NCBI RefSeq assembly: GCF_000487995.2 | Contig: NZ_CP097562.1 | Location: 1,733,001 to 1,797,000, forward strand | Origin: Mucispirillum schaedleri ASF457 | Lineage (GTDB): Bacteria > Chrysiogenota > Deferribacteres > Deferribacterales > Mucispirillaceae | DNA: 64,000 bases | Direction of reading: 5' to 3' | Made by a program: the position numbers and the translations under genes | Notes under the pieces: model-generated | Database searches by the model: none | Seen by the model: only the letters and a program-made list of their open reading frames with translations | Told to the model about the DNA's origin: nothing | Shown: positions 19,856 to 39,112 of the stretch, one piece after another | Layout of the letters: the number at the start of each line of letters is the position of its first letter | How positions within the stretch are numbered: the stretch's first letter is position 1

Positions 19856-20197
19856 ATGAATAAAAAAGATAAGTGGTTTAAACTACGATTAACACCAGAA
19901 GAAAAAGAACTTTTAAAAAGCAAGGTTGAAAAAGTTGGGTATATTACACAGTCGGATTATATTCGCCGTTTAATTACAGATGTAGAAATACCCTGTTATT
20001 TAGACAAAGTTAAGTTAAATGATATTAGACGGCTTGCTGGTCTGCTGGGTAAAAATACAGGGCTTTTAAAAATGTATATTATGGAACTTGAAGAACCTAA
20101 TAAAAAAATGATTGATAAAATTATCAATAATAATGAGAAAATCAAAAAGGAAATAAGGCAAATATTGGAACAGATAAAAGCAAAATTTAATATATAA
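19856..20197 (+). CDS. traJ: TraJ-like oriT-binding protein of the second element
   Basis: A 113-residue protein beginning MNKKDKWFKLRLTPEEKELL, then SDYIRRLITDVEIP (ribbon-helix-helix), then the family motif DIRRLAGLLGKNTGLLKMYI. It resembles the first-element TraJ over its full length. GAACGAAAGGGGG supplies the ribosome site. Unlike the first element, no relaxase gene follows; instead there is a KorB-type operator and a toxin-antitoxin module. It probably marks oriT so that a relaxase supplied in trans can nick it. Confidence 0.85.
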   Translation: MNKKDKWFKLRLTPEEKELLKSKVEKVGYITQSDYIRRLITDVEIPCYLDKVKLNDIRRLAGLLGKNTGLLKMYIMELEEPNKKMIDKIINNNEKIKKEIRQILEQIKAKFNI

Positions 20198-20252: not shown

Positions 20253-20401
20253 GTTGACATAAACATTTGAAAATACTAAAAAAGCATTGTGGATTATCTG
20301 GGGATAAGTATTTTAACTTGTAATTTTTTTATTTTTGGTGTTAAATACATACGGCACGGTGCGATTGATGGGATAGCCTACATCATAATGGAGGTAGGCT
20401 T

Positions 20402-20476
20402 ATGGTATATGAAAGCTGGATTATTCAAATAATCTTAGTAATCATAATTGCCAGCTTAATACAAAAGCTGAAATAA
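20402..20476 (+). CDS. Small hydrophobic peptide, candidate type I toxin (copy A)
   Basis: A 24-codon frame starting MVYESW and ending SLIQKLK, with a central run of about 14 hydrophobic residues and a basic end: the build of membrane-acting type I toxins such as Fst and TxpA. GGAGGT is seven bases before the ATG. AGCCTAC (20375-20381) can pair with GTAGGCT (20394-20400), partly hiding the ribosome site. Two related peptides occur at 37439-37516 and 37824-37901 with the same surroundings. A promoter TTGTAA/17/TTAAAT lies at 20318-20346. A converging RNA from 20566 shares its terminator. Toxicity is inferred from architecture and conservation only. Confidence 0.65.
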   Translation: MVYESWIIQIILVIIIASLIQKLK

Positions 20477-20481
20477 TCCAT

Positions 20482-20527
20482 AAAAAAAACCGTCTATATA
20501 TCGCAGTGTAGACGGTTATTTTTTTTA
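20482..20527. terminator. Bidirectional terminator of toxin-antitoxin module A
   Basis: AACCGTCTA pairs with TAGACGGTT, with eight A residues on the left and a T run on the right, so it can end transcription from both sides. Copies B and C have different stem bases but the same design. Confidence 0.75.
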
Positions 20528-20566
20528 AAACCAAAAACACGGGGCTATACATCAGTCCCCTGTGCT
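20484..20566 (-). ncRNA. Candidate antisense antitoxin RNA (copy A)
   Basis: A minus-strand promoter, TTGAAT (20601-20596), 17 bases, TATATT (20578-20573), is followed by GTAGCACAGGGGACTG, a GGGG/CCCC hairpin and the shared terminator. The same promoter spacing and 5' sequence occur in copies B and C. The 3' part is complementary to the toxin mRNA tail. The transcript start is estimated from the -10 box. Confidence 0.6.
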
Positions 20567-20673
20567 ACTCTTAATATAATCAATATTTTATATAAATTCA
20601 AGTCTTTTTTTACTTACACCATATAAAAAATAATACTTCTTGGCAATTCTTTTGCTTATTCTACAACTACAAA

Positions 20674-20694
20674 ATATTTTAGTGGCTAAAATTT
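20674..20694. promoter_or_regulatory. Degenerate KorB-type site before the integrase gene
   Basis: Core TTTAGTGGCTAAA at 20678-20690, one base from the 13-bp consensus; the left arm is otherwise imperfect. It ends 24 bp before the integrase start, so it may control integration. Confidence 0.45.
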
Positions 20695-20718: not shown

Positions 20719-21615
20719 ATGGATAGTTTAGAAGCATTACAGCAAATAAATATTTTATCATCTGCAATTTTATCAAATTTTAATTCTATTACATTAAAAG
20801 AGTATATAGAAGACTATTATATACCTTTTCAGAAAAACGCCAAAAAAGAAACAAATTACAGGCATATTTTAGGGCAGTTAAATATTATAGCAGGCTATGA
20901 TTTTACAGATAAGGCAATAAATGCAGTATCTGAAAATGATATAATAAACTTTTTTAATATTTTAAAAAGTGATAGGAATATTAAACAGGCAACACAAAAC
21001 CGTTACAGGTCATTATTAAATCATATCTTTAATACAGCGATTAAAGATAAAGTAGTTAATTACAACCCAGTAAAATATACTAAAAAATTCAAAGAAATAA
21101 GCAGGGACAGGGCTTTAAATAGTAGTGAAATAAAAGCACTATTGCAGGCTTGCAGTGATTCCAGGAATCAAGAATTATACTATATTGTCATGATTGCATT
21201 ATATACTGGTATGAGATACAGCAATATAGTAAATATGAAGAAATCAAATATTAAAGGTAATGTTTACCAGCTTGACGGTAACGAAACTAAATCAGGCAAA
21301 GGGCAGCTTATATATTTACATCAAGATTTAATGAATGAATTAAATAAGCATATGCAGGCTTATAATAGAGATAATATATTTATTACAAAAAGGGTCAAGC
21401 GGTCATTTAAAACAGCCTGTAATAAAGCAGGTATAGAAAATTTTAGATTCCACGATTTAAGGAGGACATTTGCAACTTTTTTACTGTATAATAATACTAA
21501 TATTAAAACTATTCAAAATATACTGGGGCATAGTTCTATTATGATGACAGAGAGATATTTAGCAAATGACAGCAAAAAAGAGCTTGACGCAATTAATAAA
21601 TTATGCTTTATTTAG
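20719..21615 (+). CDS. Tyrosine recombinase (integrase) of the tRNA-Asn element
   Basis: A 298-residue integrase. The N-terminal SAM-like DNA-binding domain (LKEYIEDYYIPFQK to about residue 115) is followed by the catalytic domain with ALYTGMRYSNIV (first Arg), FHDLRRTFATFLL (His and second Arg), ILGHSS (His) and MTERYL (catalytic Tyr, near residue 285). It lies 100 bp from the right attachment repeat, the usual place, and reads toward it. GGAG precedes the ATG. It should integrate and, with a helper, excise the element at tRNA-Asn. Length and motifs are normal, so it is probably active. The restriction-modification island beyond has no integrase of its own and may have depended on a related enzyme. 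Confidence 0.93.
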   Translation: MDSLEALQQINILSSAILSNFNSITLKEYIEDYYIPFQKNAKKETNYRHILGQLNIIAGYDFTDKAINAVSENDIINFFNILKSDRNIKQATQNRYRSLLNHIFNTAIKDKVVNYNPVKYTKKFKEISRDRALNSSEIKALLQACSDSRNQELYYIVMIALYTGMRYSNIVNMKKSNIKGNVYQLDGNETKSGKGQLIYLHQDLMNELNKHMQAYNRDNIFITKRVKRSFKTACNKAGIENFRFHDLRRTFATFLLYNNTNIKTIQNILGHSSIMMTERYLANDSKKELDAINKLCFI

Positions 21616-35915: not shown

Positions 35916-37055
35916 ATGAAAAAGGTTTTATTAACTTTGATTGCTGTCTTAATGGCAGTTCCTGCTTTCGCTATTGAAGTTTATAACAATGGCGAAAATG
36001 CTGTTGATATTTATGGCACACTCCGTGGCTATATTGGCTATGGACATGGTGTAGATGGTGTATCTGACACGACTGATGATAACTTTCTTTACGGGATACA
36101 AGGAAACTCTCGTATAGGTGTAAGATTAAAAGTTGGTAATTTTTCCGGACAGGTAGAATTAGGTGCTGTAGAAGCTACTCTTTATGGTCGTTCTACTGGA
36201 AGTAATGTTGGTTTAAGGCAGGCTTGGGGTGCTTATTCATTTGGTAATGCAGGTGCTCTTCTTGCAGGTAAAACTGATACTCCAACAGCAATGGGCGGTT
36301 TTATTTCTGATATTATGGATACTGACGGTGGCTTAAACGGTTTTGGAGGCAGCACTACTGGGTCAAGACGCTTTCAAATACAATACAATGTTGCAGGTTT
36401 AAGCATTGCATTAATTGAAAACGATATGGCATATGGTCCTGGTGTTAGTTACGGCTATACTGATGGCGGTGAAACTATTCCTCGTCTTGGCTTAAGTTAT
36501 ACATATAAAAATCCTTCTTTATTAGTTAAAGTAGCTGCTACTTACAGTGCATTAAACGGAACTATTAATGCACCTGTATCAGATACTCGTTGGGCAACTG
36601 TTCATGCTTTTGGTGTAGCTCTTGGTTTAAAACCTACTTTTATGGATGGTAAAATGTGGTTATCTGTTCTTGCAAGATATGGTATGAATGAAGAATTATA
36701 TGGAGAAGCTAAAACTGTTTATAATGGCGGTTTAATGGCTCACAGCTCTATTGGTAATTATGTTGGTGTTCAAGCAGATGGAACTGTTGATAATGTTCAA
36801 AGAGCAGCTGTAGCATTAGAGTTAGGTTACAATGTTAATGATATGATAGCTGTTATAGTAGGTGGCGGTTATCAGCACAGTATGATTGATGCACTTACAT
36901 ATGATGTAGGCTCTTATGCAGTATTCTTACAAGCACCAATCAAAATAAGCGGTAATTTTGCTCTTATCCCACAATTTACTTATACTGGAACAAGATTAGA
37001 CAGCGATAACAAAGATTCTCTTGTTTTAGCTATGCAGGCAAGAATTACTTTCTAA
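35916..37055 (+). CDS. Outer-membrane porin-like protein
   Basis: A 379-residue protein with a classical signal peptide (MKKVLLTLIAVLMAVPAFA, cut before IEVYN). The mature part has alternating beta-strand character: VDIYGTLRGYIGYGHG, RIGVRLKVGNFSGQVELGA, and the last residue is Phe in MQARITF, as required for barrel assembly. GKTDTPTAMGG resembles the loop region of trimeric general porins. It should form diffusion channels in the outer membrane. AGGAGG stands right before the start, and 290 bp of non-coding, A/T-rich upstream DNA suggests a strong, regulated promoter. A perfect terminator follows. Confidence 0.8.
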   Translation: MKKVLLTLIAVLMAVPAFAIEVYNNGENAVDIYGTLRGYIGYGHGVDGVSDTTDDNFLYGIQGNSRIGVRLKVGNFSGQVELGAVEATLYGRSTGSNVGLRQAWGAYSFGNAGALLAGKTDTPTAMGGFISDIMDTDGGLNGFGGSTTGSRRFQIQYNVAGLSIALIENDMAYGPGVSYGYTDGGETIPRLGLSYTYKNPSLLVKVAATYSALNGTINAPVSDTRWATVHAFGVALGLKPTFMDGKMWLSVLARYGMNEELYGEAKTVYNGGLMAHSSIGNYVGVQADGTVDNVQRAAVALELGYNVNDMIAVIVGGGYQHSMIDALTYDVGSYAVFLQAPIKISGNFALIPQFTYTGTRLDSDNKDSLVLAMQARITF

Positions 37056-37118: not shown

Positions 37119-37368
37119 GTAATAGTTATGTGATTATATTTATTATGTTATTATGAATATAGCTAATAATATATTAAGTTTAAATACTTTGCCATTATAT
37201 AGCTTTAAATGATTAGATATGGTTAGAGTAGTAATAATTAAGTTTCCAGACTTATCAAAAATTTTGGAAATTGTAGAATAAGCAAAATAACTTCCAGTAA
37301 GAAATATTTTTATACTGTATTATAAAAAAGGACTTGCAGAAATTATATTCTTTAAGTATATTAAAGGC

Positions 37369-37449
37369 ACGGGAAGGCTGGACTGATCAGCCCCCGATTC
37401 TGGTTAAAAATAACCGTTCATCTTTGGTAGTTGGGCGGTTATTTTTTTA
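37369..37449 (+). ncRNA. Candidate antisense antitoxin RNA (copy B)
   Basis: The promoter TTGCAG (37334-37339), 17 bases, TATATT (37357-37362) leads to an RNA beginning near GCACGGGAAGG, with a CTGGACTGATCAGCC hairpin and a terminator stem AAAATAACCG/CGGTTATTTT. It converges on the peptide gene at 37439-37516 and overlaps its 3' end. Confidence 0.6.
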
Positions 37450-37516
37450 TATAAAATAAAATTATGCTTTCAAGTATTATAAAGATTATATACAAATGAT
37501 ATACTTCTGTTACCAT
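37439..37516 (-). CDS. Small hydrophobic peptide, candidate type I toxin (copy B)
   Basis: A 25-codon frame, MVTEVYHLY at the start and ILFYIKK at the end, with a hydrophobic middle of about 14 residues. The ribosome site AAGGAGGT is exactly paired with CCTCCTT in a 7-bp stem with a 3-base loop (37522-37538), so translation should need structure opening or processing. The promoter is TTGTAT, 18 bases, TATAAG on the minus strand at about 37567-37596. Related to copies A and C by its surroundings more than by residues, though the ends FYIKK are shared with C. Confidence 0.65.
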   Translation of the reverse strand: MVTEVYHLYIIFIILESIILFYIKK

Positions 37517-37735
37517 AAGCACCTCCTTTCTAAGGAGGCTACCAGCCACAGCCAAACCGTGCTTATATCTTATAACACCAAAAAATAAAAAAATACAAGT
37601 AAAAATACTTATTTAACTTACCAAAAAATTTTAGGAATTGTAGAATAAGTAAAAGGACTGCCAATAAGAAATATTTTTATATGGTGTAGTAAAAAAGAAC
37701 TTGCAGAAATGGCATTTTTTGATTATATTAGAAGT

Positions 37736-37834
37736 AGCACAGGGGACTGGTATGGTCAGCCCCTTAGTGTGAGATTTTAAAGAAATATCTTAAAATAACC
37801 ACCTGCTGGGCAAAACAAGGTGGTTATTTTTTTA
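37736..37834 (+). ncRNA. Candidate antisense antitoxin RNA (copy C)
   Basis: The promoter TTGCAG (37701-37706), 17 bases, TATATT (37724-37729) leads to GTAGCACAGGGGACTGG, nearly identical to copy A, then a CAGCCCC hairpin and the terminator AAAATAACCACC/GGTGGTTATTTT. It overlaps the 3' end of the peptide gene at 37824. Confidence 0.6.
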
Positions 37835-37901
37835 TGTAAAAAATTATGGTTGCCGTTACCAGCACACATAATGCAAATGTGATATGATTTTCATATACCA
37901 T
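37824..37901 (-). CDS. Small hydrophobic peptide, candidate type I toxin (copy C)
   Basis: A 25-codon frame starting MVYEN, as copy A, with the hydrophobic stretch FALCVLVTATIIF and the end YIKK. GGGGGTGG before the ATG is a weaker ribosome site. The upstream region (TACTTGTATTTTTTTA, then TTTTTGGTGTTT) is shared with copies A and B and contains the predicted promoter. Directly upstream lies the remnant of a traJ gene and its operator, in the same order as copy A, so this module belongs to an old copy of the element. Confidence 0.65.
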   Translation of the reverse strand: MVYENHITFALCVLVTATIIFYIKK

Positions 37902-38132
37902 AAGCCACCCCCTTACTTATTCCGAATGGTTAATCCTAATGGATAAAAAGAAAGGTAGCCAACCACCAGCCCGCACTGTGCTATTAGGCTTAAAGCCTAG
38001 ATAGAATAAACACCAAAAAGTAAAAAAATACAAGTAAAAATACTTATCCCCAGATAATCCACAATGTTTTTTTAGTATTTTCAAGTATTTATGTTGAGCT
38101 GCTTAATGATTAAGCAGTCAAGCAGATATATA

Positions 38133-38153
38133 AAATTTCAGCTGCTAAAATTA
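38133..38153. promoter_or_regulatory. Decayed KorB-type site in the relic
   Basis: TTCAGCTGCTAAA at 38137-38149, two bases from consensus. It stands between the traJ remnant and the CTGCTTAA palindrome (38099-38117), as in 20198-20252. Confidence 0.45.
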
Positions 38154-38159
38154 TATATG

Positions 38160-38257
38160 TTAAATTTTGCTTTTATCTGCTCTAACAGCTGCTTTATTTC
38201 CTTTTTGATTTTCTTATTTTCATTTATAATCTGATTAATATTTTTTATTAGTTACAT
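38160..38257 (-). pseudogene. C-terminal fragment of a traJ-like gene
   Basis: On the minus strand about 29 codons read KNINQIINENKKIKKEIKQL then LEQIKAKFN, matching the end of the traJ product at 19856-20197 (NNNEKIKKEIRQILEQIKAKFN). The rest of the gene is missing; thiF begins just beyond on the other strand. Sequence downstream, including ATTGTGGATTATCTGGGG (38051-38075, complement), also matches the second element. This identifies 37.2-38.26 kb as a relic of that element family. Confidence 0.75.
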
Positions 38258-38311
38258 TAAGCTTTTTTTGATTTCTTGACTTTTATAATCAACCATAATA
38301 TACTTTTTATT

Positions 38312-39112
38312 ATGAAAATTACAGTTAACGGCAAAGAATTATTTATAGAAAAGCCTTTATCCATTAAAAATTTAATACTTGAATTGAATGTAGATTCAGA
38401 TATATTTATAGCAAACTCCTTCCCTGTTTCATTGTCATATAACATAAAAAATAATGATGTTATTACTTTAATAAAAAAAGGCAGCATACCTGATAAAGAT
38501 TATTTAGAATATCAGCTTATCAGCAGGCAGGGTTTAAAAGAATATAATATATTAAAAAATTCATCAGTTGCAGTATGTGGACTTGGTGGGCTTGGAAGTA
38601 ATGCTGCCATAAGTCTTGCAAGAGCAGGGGTTGGCAGTTTAAAACTTATTGATTTTGATATAGTTGAGCCGTCAAATATAAACAGGCAGGCTTATTTTAT
38701 AGAGCATATTGGTAAAAATAAAACTGATGCCTTAAAGGAAATAATAAATAAAATATCACCTTATATTAATATAGAAACAGCAAATATTTATTTAGATGAA
38801 ACAAATATTATAAATGAACTTTCAGGTTTTAATGTAATACTTGAATGTTTTGATAATATTTCTTCTAAAATGATGTTAATAGAAAAATGTGTAAATAATA
38901 TGCGTGACAGTTATATTATAGGTGCATCAGGTGTGGCAGGATATTATAATACAGATAAGTTTACAAAAAAATCTTTAGGCAGTAATTGTATAATAATAGG
39001 TGATTTTGAAAATGAAGCAGGCTTTAATCAGGGGCTTTATGCTCCGCGGGTAACAGCTGCTGCAAATATTCAGGCAAATGAAACCATAAGATATTTATTA
39101 AAGGATAAATAA
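38312..39112 (+). CDS. thiF: ThiF/MoeB-like adenylating enzyme with N-terminal ThiS-like domain
   Basis: I start it at 38312 (266 aa, MKITVNGKELFIEKPLSIKN); the earlier ATG at 38276 lies in relic sequence. The first 65 residues resemble ThiS (ubiquitin-like fold) but lack a Gly-Gly end and run directly into an E1-like domain: SSVAVCGLGGLGSNAAISLARAGVG (nucleotide site), IDFDIVEPSNINRQ and ILECFDNISSK. It should adenylate a sulfur-carrier protein, most likely the ThiS encoded next. No CxxC zinc pairs are visible, as in some short ThiF variants. The start overlaps no gene; its stop overlaps thiS by one base. Confidence 0.8.
   Translation: MKITVNGKELFIEKPLSIKNLILELNVDSDIFIANSFPVSLSYNIKNNDVITLIKKGSIPDKDYLEYQLISRQGLKEYNILKNSSVAVCGLGGLGSNAAISLARAGVGSLKLIDFDIVEPSNINRQAYFIEHIGKNKTDALKEIINKISPYINIETANIYLDETNIINELSGFNVILECFDNISSKMMLIEKCVNNMRDSYIIGASGVAGYYNTDKFTKKSLGSNCIIIGDFENEAGFNQGLYAPRVTAAANIQANETIRYLLKDK

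What the first reader, a model, noticed from the sequence alone, without database searches (positions are those of the whole stretch)
37330..38010. Two more toxin-antitoxin copies in tandem, retained in a dead element
Copies B and C lie head to tail, each with its own promoter pair, antisense RNA and peptide. Around them the parental element has decayed to a traJ tail and an operator. Survival of these modules while everything else is lost is what is expected of addiction genes, or of modules adopted as anti-addiction against copy A-type elements.
Basis: partly seen in the sequence, partly recalled or inferred. Interest (0 to 1): 0.75.

Follow-up and report, generated by a model that had tools for sequence, protein, structure and literature searches.

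The report
Tandem type I toxin-antitoxin RNA modules
Two tiny self-contained poison-and-antidote RNA modules, left behind when a mobile DNA element decayed in a gut bacterium, belong to an apparently undescribed family whose toxin message seems able to fold its two ends together to keep itself silent.

Summary
On the minus strand at 37240-38060 lie two complete, head-to-tail type I toxin-antitoxin modules, B and C. Each has a Shine-Dalgarno site, a 25-codon hydrophobic peptide, a shared hairpin, and a convergent antisense RNA (82-98 nt, predicted) with a conserved promoter. They sit in an insert absent from related genomes, beside a decayed mobilization-gene tail and a decayed KorB-type operator.

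The host is Mucispirillum. Fifteen modules occur in 7 of 10 genomes of the genus; no convincing relative turned up in 35 other genomes of the order.

B and C are not copies of one module: their cores are 42% identical, and B's nearest relative (90%) is in another species. Antisense cross-pairing among resident modules is predicted to be weak, so anti-addiction against copy A is not supported.

New feature: the 5' ends of toxin mRNA and antitoxin are nearly the same sequence, not complementary. A toxin transcript that reads through the shared hairpin could close on itself through 21-28 pairs, as in hok and aapA3 mRNAs. This covaries across modules; Fst/par-type complementarity does not exceed shuffles.

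Expression, RNA ends and toxicity are untested. Verdict: a new, genus-restricted variant of type I systems.

The parts
37124..38262 (.). insert between the porin (35916-37055) and thiF-like (38276-39112) genes that is absent in relatives; approximate ends
   Evidence: porin 3' flank and thiF 5' flank align to short intergenic regions in L033, L034 and L036 without the insert
37593..37598 (-). module B toxin promoter -35 (TTGTAT); -10 TATAAG at 37569-37574
   Evidence: conserved position in modules
37367..37564 (-). module B toxin mRNA, long form (read-through), predicted; start and end inferred
   Evidence: window 37368-37565 folds with z -4.8, 0 of 200 shuffles as stable
37439..37516 (-). module B toxin ORF, 25 aa MVTEVYHLYIIFIILESIILFYIKK plus stop
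37334..37362 (+). module B antitoxin promoter TTGCAG-17-TATATT
37366..37448 (+). module B antisense RNA (antitoxin), about 82 nt: 5' hairpin plus terminator
   Evidence: covariance model hit, E 1.1e-7 (B is among the sequences the model was built from); fold
37533..37563 (-). module B 5' fold-back arm; its partner is the complement of 37367-37396
   Evidence: 25 bp, -44.2 kcal/mol
38028..38033 (-). module C toxin promoter -35 (TTGTAT); -10 TATTCT at 38003-38008
37734..37999 (-). module C toxin mRNA, long form, with a 6-bp 5' terminal hairpin; start and end inferred
   Evidence: fold z -6.9, 0 of 200 shuffles
37824..37901 (-). module C toxin ORF, 25 aa MVYENHITFALCVLVTATIIFYIKK plus stop
37701..37729 (+). 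module C antitoxin promoter TTGCAG-17-TATATT
37736..37833 (+). module C antisense RNA (antitoxin), 98 nt
   Evidence: covariance model hit, E 8.9e-13 (C is among the sequences the model was built from)
37950..37982 (-). module C 5' fold-back arm; its partner is the complement of 37736-37765
   Evidence: 28 bp, -39.8 kcal/mol
37792..37830 (.). module C shared hairpin: T7 run on the antitoxin side (made by the KK-stop codons), T4 on the toxin side
37257..37363 (.). element-derived flank repeat, 82% identical to 37624-37730; a related stretch lies upstream of the integrase in copy A's element
38153..38261 (-). decayed 3' tail of a NikA-like mobilization gene
38136..38150 (.). decayed KorB-type operator (2 mismatches)
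20402..20476 (+). copy A toxin ORF (MVYESWIIQIILVIIIASLIQKLK) in an element with a mobilization gene (19856-20197) and an integrase (20719-21615)

Best explanation
B and C are two distinct, structurally complete type I toxin-antitoxin modules of a family found only in Mucispirillum. Each makes a toxin mRNA for a 25-aa membrane peptide and, from the opposite strand, a small antisense RNA (82-98 nt). The Shine-Dalgarno site is buried in a local stem in most modules. The hairpin after the stop codon ends the antitoxin efficiently but the toxin mRNA poorly. A toxin mRNA that reads through carries the complement of the whole antitoxin, and its 3' end pairs with its own 5' end (21-28 pairs), giving an inert, stable message. 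The antitoxin is complementary to the 3' half of that message and would mark it for destruction. When the element is lost the antitoxin disappears first; 3' trimming would release the 5' end and allow the peptide to be made. On conjugative and mobilizable elements this would stabilise the element. B and C are leftovers of such an element. Shown here: the anatomy, the conservation, the fold-back covariation, the predicted specificity and the decayed element. Inferred: transcription, RNA ends, stability, toxicity, RNase steps, and any present benefit to the host.
For: A peptide of 23-25 codons with start site and following hairpin is kept in 11 of 14 modules examined (N's is divergent). Of 245 small ORFs in the window only A, B and C combine a hydrophobic stretch with a Shine-Dalgarno site. 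The RNA model finds 15 loci at E <= 5.3e-6 in 7 of 10 genus genomes (these include the 12 it was built from). Fold-back pairing beats shuffles in 13 of 13 modules (z -3.7 to -7.9), while trans pairing of the two 5' ends mostly does not (z 0.6 to -3.2). Own-partner fold-back pairing is the best of 120 and of 720 permutations, and among the best 2 of 5040. Long mRNAs of B, C and A fold with z -4.8, -6.9 and -7.2. T-run after the shared hairpin: at least 6 on the antitoxin side in 13 of 13, at most 5 on the toxin side in 11 of 13 (row N dropped because the script picked another hairpin). Modules sit beside integrase, mobilization, TrbE-like, secretion-ATPase and ParA/ParB genes. Antitoxins are predicted specific.
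Against: No expression or toxicity data exist. The module promoters are below the consensus scan's threshold. Synonymous and non-synonymous divergence are similar in five of ten pairs, so selection on the peptide sequence is not shown beyond B-F and, more weakly, C-H. The fold-back does not hide the Shine-Dalgarno site better: its predicted unpaired probability is higher in the long than in the short form for B (0.48 against 0.34), C (0.20, 0.07) and F (0.55, 0.26) and about the same for the others (10 of 12 rows before the script stopped), so fold-back may act on mRNA stability and not on start-site access. Copy A has a strong T8 run on the toxin side, so read-through may be poor there. I saw no obvious terminator just beyond the fold-back.
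Confidence: 0.78

Rival explanations
1. par(pAD1)/Fst-type control: the toxin mRNA stops at the shared hairpin, and the antitoxin blocks translation through hairpin contact plus complementary 5' repeats.
For: Convergent RNAs and a shared hairpin, as described for par (PMC4147584, passages). Short forms fold with the Shine-Dalgarno site partly or fully sequestered.
Against: 5' ends are near-identical, not complementary; trans complementarity of the 5' regions is z 0.3 to -2.5. The toxin-side T-run is weak in 11 of 13. No tryptophan, proline or glycine in B or C, against the Fst/Ldr signature (PMC7472228, its part on sequence comparisons).
Confidence: 0.3
2. Non-functional relic: B and C persist only because the insertion is recent and small targets escape mutation.
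For: Stand-alone modules E, M, O and P are broken. pN is about pS or higher in five of ten pairs. The insert is lineage-specific.
Against: B-F: 3 synonymous and 1 non-synonymous difference. Both modules keep promoters, start site, ORF and hairpin while the neighbouring gene and operator have decayed.
Confidence: 0.35
3. Anti-addiction: resident antitoxins B and C protect the host from post-segregational killing by incoming elements.
For: B's antitoxin is predicted to pair with F-type toxin mRNA of another species, and the reverse (-66 and -64 kcal/mol); 90% core identity.
Against: Cross-pairing with A's mRNA is -4 (B) and -15 (C) kcal/mol against -89 to -102 for cognate pairs; C's antitoxin with the second resident element's module D is -17.
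Confidence: 0.12
4. The inverted repeat of the two 5' ends acts at DNA level (recombination, cassette exchange or repeat homogenisation) and not in RNA.
For: Elements A and D are near-identical up to the toxin -10 box and identical again from the antitoxin 5' arm, with different cores between. K and K2 are a 424-nt block, 100% identical in two species whose neighbouring DNA is 92-96% identical.
Against: The arms keep an asymmetric interruption in most modules, which homogenisation would tend to remove. The repeat lies at the two inferred transcription starts.
Confidence: 0.15
5. Leader peptide and attenuator of the neighbouring gene, not a toxin.
For: Copy A reads toward an integrase gene.
Against: B and C read toward the porin gene's 3' end and precede no gene. 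Neighbours differ from module to module.
Confidence: 0.05

Closest known systems
hok/Sok and AapA3/IsoA3 (end-to-end folded toxin mRNAs)
   Same: Toxin mRNA predicted to be locked by pairing of its two ends, with activation by 3' processing; PMC6733600 says this of aapA3 and likens it to hok (passages).
   Different: Here the antisense RNA is convergent and covers the 3' half, including the fold-back arm. In hok, Sok pairs in the 5' leader over mok (PMC4147584 passages). No family match for the peptides or RNAs.
par(pAD1) RNA I/RNA II, Fst/Ldr family
   Same: Convergent small RNAs, shared hairpin, small hydrophobic peptide, presence on mobile elements.
   Different: No tryptophan, proline or glycine in B or C. 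The 5' ends are inverted, not direct, repeats. The hairpin is unequal in its T-runs.
TxpA/RatA and BsrG/SR4 of Bacillus subtilis
   Same: 3'-overlapping convergent antisense RNA; mRNA decay is a likely mode.
   Different: TxpA is 59 aa (PMC4147584 passages), against 25 here. Rfam BsrG matches B only at 16.3 bits, E 0.24, below its gathering score of 55.
MsoT1/MsoA1 of Microcystis
   Same: A type I system outside the classical phyla.
   Different: Unrelated organism; its paper states that type I systems were otherwise known only in Proteobacteria, Firmicutes and Tenericutes (PMC12390103 abstract and passages). No direct sequence comparison was made.

Membership tests
type I toxin-antitoxin system (general) | small hydrophobic peptide with its own ribosome binding site | tested here: met
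type I toxin-antitoxin system (general) | cis-encoded antisense RNA with its own promoter | tested here: inconclusive
   conserved promoter spacing and RNA model; consensus scan negative; no transcripts examined
type I toxin-antitoxin system (general) | peptide is toxic and the RNA neutralises it | not testable with these tools
   needs expression
Fst/Ldr (par) | conserved tryptophan after the membrane helix and P/D/S/TXXXG motif | tested here: not met
   no W, P or G in B or C; features from PMC7472228, which notes that the prototype itself lacks the tryptophan
Fst/Ldr (par) | complementary direct repeats in the 5' regions | tested here: not met
Fst/Ldr (par) | convergent RNAs that share a terminator hairpin | tested here: met
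   the hairpin's T-runs are unequal
Hok/Sok | Hok protein family | tested here: not met
   no Pfam match for B; only an unrelated E 0.14 match for C; no NCBIfam match for 7 of 7 peptides
Hok/Sok | end-to-end fold-back of the full-length mRNA | tested here: met
   by computation only:
Hok/Sok | antisense RNA over the 5' leader | tested here: not met
   predicted antisense RNA lies over the 3' half
BsrG/SR4 and TxpA/RatA | match to an Rfam family above its cut-off | tested here: not met
AapA/IsoA | sequence relation of the peptides | not tested
   no direct comparison run; no Pfam or NCBIfam family matched

The most novel reading that the evidence does not exclude
An 'inverted-repeat' type I system: the antitoxin's 5' hairpin is a near-copy of the toxin mRNA's own 5' end. 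Both compete for the same 3' arm, so the antitoxin acts by replacing the mRNA's own 5' strand. Such modules are traded as cassettes, from one promoter's -10 box to the other, at a fixed slot between KorB operators on conjugative elements, and are forced apart in specificity because several share one cell.
Probability: 0.3. Interest if true: 0.72.

Novelty: new variant of a known kind. Interest (0 to 1): 0.55.

Why it matters
It would add the phylum of Mucispirillum to those with type I systems, which a 2025 paper lists as Proteobacteria, Firmicutes and Tenericutes plus its own cyanobacterial case (PMC12390103, abstract and passages). It offers a natural series of at least six specificity types with built-in covariation, so end-to-end folding of toxin mRNAs and antitoxin specificity can be tested by swaps. 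Five modules in one genome, in complete and decayed elements, give a direct test of whether stranded addiction modules are kept, lost or reused.

Tried and rejected
B and C as recent duplicates: rejected, cores 42% identical. Antitoxin cross-protection against copy A: not supported. par-type complementary 5' repeats: not above shuffles in most modules. Relatives outside the genus: the peptide profile gave one weak match (E 0.037) in 35 order genomes outside the genus at E <= 0.1, nothing outside the genus at E <= 0.01 among 40 non-genus phylum genomes, and nothing in plasmids, phages or viral contigs. The RNA model gave weak non-genus matches (best E 0.00133; calibration is rough); the three such loci fetched (L095-L097) hold no hydrophobic peptide with a start site. 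Rfam, Pfam and NCBIfam gave no family. Sequence-level selection was inconclusive. Literature: 'Mucispirillum' plus 'toxin-antitoxin' gave 4 papers, seen as a listing; the one opened has the term only in its reference list. 'type I toxin' plus 'Deferribacter' gave one unrelated paper by title and start of abstract. One search was too loose to inform. That the family is undescribed rests on these searches only.

Full report
What is there. The stretch 37124-38262 is an insert between an outer-membrane porin gene and a thiF-like gene; four of nine relatives (L033, L034, L036, L038) keep those genes side by side without it. Inside it, on the minus strand, lie two modules, C (37606-38060) and B (37240-37620). 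Each has a conserved toxin promoter, a 5' leader, a Shine-Dalgarno site, a 25-codon ORF (C: MVYENHITFALCVLVTATIIFYIKK; B: MVTEVYHLYIIFIILESIILFYIKK), a hairpin, and an antisense promoter firing the other way. The last codons, KK-stop, supply the antisense RNA's T-run. A consensus promoter scan did not flag these promoters; the antisense promoter pattern is nevertheless present with a 17-nt spacer in 13 of 14 modules.

Host and range. Pattern matches in named contigs are all Mucispirillum (5 of 5). The window's genome (2.35 Mb, one contig) holds five modules: A (20291-20690 of the window), B, C, D (genome 517 kb) and E (1471 kb). With an RNA model built from 12 antisense RNAs, 15 loci score E <= 5.3e-6 in 7 of 10 genomes of the genus, the 12 training sequences among them. 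Among 35 other genomes of the order the best is 0.00133, and no hydrophobic peptide with a start site lies at the three non-genus loci that were fetched. The peptide profile agrees. Plasmid, phage and viral collections gave nothing.

Element context. A, D and G lie between a NikA-like mobilization gene and an integrase. N lies before an integrase. H and I lie on elements with a secretion ATPase, a TrbE-like protein, ParA, ParB/KorB and an integrase (families were searched for neighbours of A and H and one neighbour each of D and E, the rest read from similarity). B/C keep only the tail of the mobilization gene (84% over 256 nt including its downstream region) and a decayed operator. F, J, K, M, O and P are stand-alone by my reading of their neighbours. 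E, M and O have disrupted peptides and P is truncated. One element, L031, lacks a module altogether.

Modules are exchanged. Elements A and D are 99.8% identical over 1572 nt that end at the toxin -10 box, differ in the core, and match again from the antitoxin's 5' arm. B's core is 90% identical to F of another species, while its flanks match C's. K and K2 are a 424-nt block, 100% identical in two species whose neighbouring DNA is 92-96% identical.

Fold-back. The first 30 or so nt of toxin mRNA and antitoxin are near-identical within each module, so they form an inverted repeat in DNA. Pairing of the mRNA 5' end with the complement of the antitoxin 5' end is stronger than shuffles in 13 of 13 modules (z -3.7 to -7.9), with 21-28 pairs. 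Own partners beat swapped partners: best of 120, best of 720 and among the best 2 of 5040 permutations. Complementary pairing of the two 5' ends shows no such pattern at 24 nt and only a weak one at 32-42 nt (5 and 8 of 120, 62 and 51 of 720, 449 and 384 of 5040). Long mRNAs of C, B and A fold with z -6.9, -4.8 and -7.2. The toxin side of the shared hairpin has a weak T-run in 11 of 13 modules, the antitoxin side a long one in 13 of 13 (N dropped), which suggests read-through into the fold-back arm. RNA ends are inferred. Predicted Shine-Dalgarno accessibility is low in most modules and intermediate in A, B and F, and it is not lower in the long form; in B, C and F it is higher (10 of 12 rows). 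Fold-back is therefore more likely to stabilise the message than to hide its start site.

Specificity. Among the eight modules tested, cognate antitoxin-mRNA net energies are -79 to -104 kcal/mol. Non-cognate values are 0 to -30, except B with F (-64, -66), which are the same type. Resident modules are therefore predicted to act separately, which argues against anti-addiction toward A or D.

Selection. Of ten pairs compared, B-F shows few amino-acid changes against synonymous ones (pN 0.02, pS 0.23). C-H leans the same way (0.19, 0.45), as does the distant B-C pair (0.48, 0.76). Two pairs are identical; the other five have pN about equal to or above pS. Present function of B and C is open.

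Comparison. The arrangement resembles par(pAD1) and the 3'-overlapping Bacillus systems (PMC4147584 passages; PMC7472228 two sections), but the peptide motif and direct repeats of Fst/par are absent. The end-to-end fold resembles hok and aapA3 mRNAs (PMC6733600 passages), but the antisense RNA is placed differently. I file it as a new variant of type I systems, not as a member of a named family.

Noticed in passing
window 727, 3092, 8442, 19246, 20201 (exact); 6063, 9495, 20677 (1 mismatch); genome 516126-517607, 1713162: TTTTAGCSGCTAAAA, the core of the RK2 KorB operator used in PMC11790492 (passages), occurs exactly at 9 places in this genome with none for the reversed control; one KorB-domain gene lies at genome 1712006. 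Sites flank toxin-antitoxin modules A and D. The stretch around window 0.7-9.5 kb was not examined for element genes. An IncP-type regulon may exist in Mucispirillum.
   Followed up: partly
L014 1449-1872 and L023 (reverse strand): A 424-nt module block, 100% identical in two species with neighbouring DNA 92-96% identical, with 47-nt near-direct repeats at its ends; looks recently transferred or strongly conserved.
   Followed up: partly
L031 about 1501-1540: An element of the same kind that lacks the module: a natural loss or an ancestral empty slot.
   Followed up: no
L003 / genome 1471 kb: Module E has a shortened A-run at KK-stop, so its peptide runs on to 41 aa; what looks like a second, decayed toxin leader lies directly downstream, another tandem.
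   Followed up: no
L035 380-1560: In relative G009 the same porin-thiF interval holds a different, longer sequence, so the site may be an insertion hotspot.
   Followed up: no
window 38276-39112: The neighbouring gene joins a ThiS-like domain to a ThiF domain in one protein.
   Followed up: no
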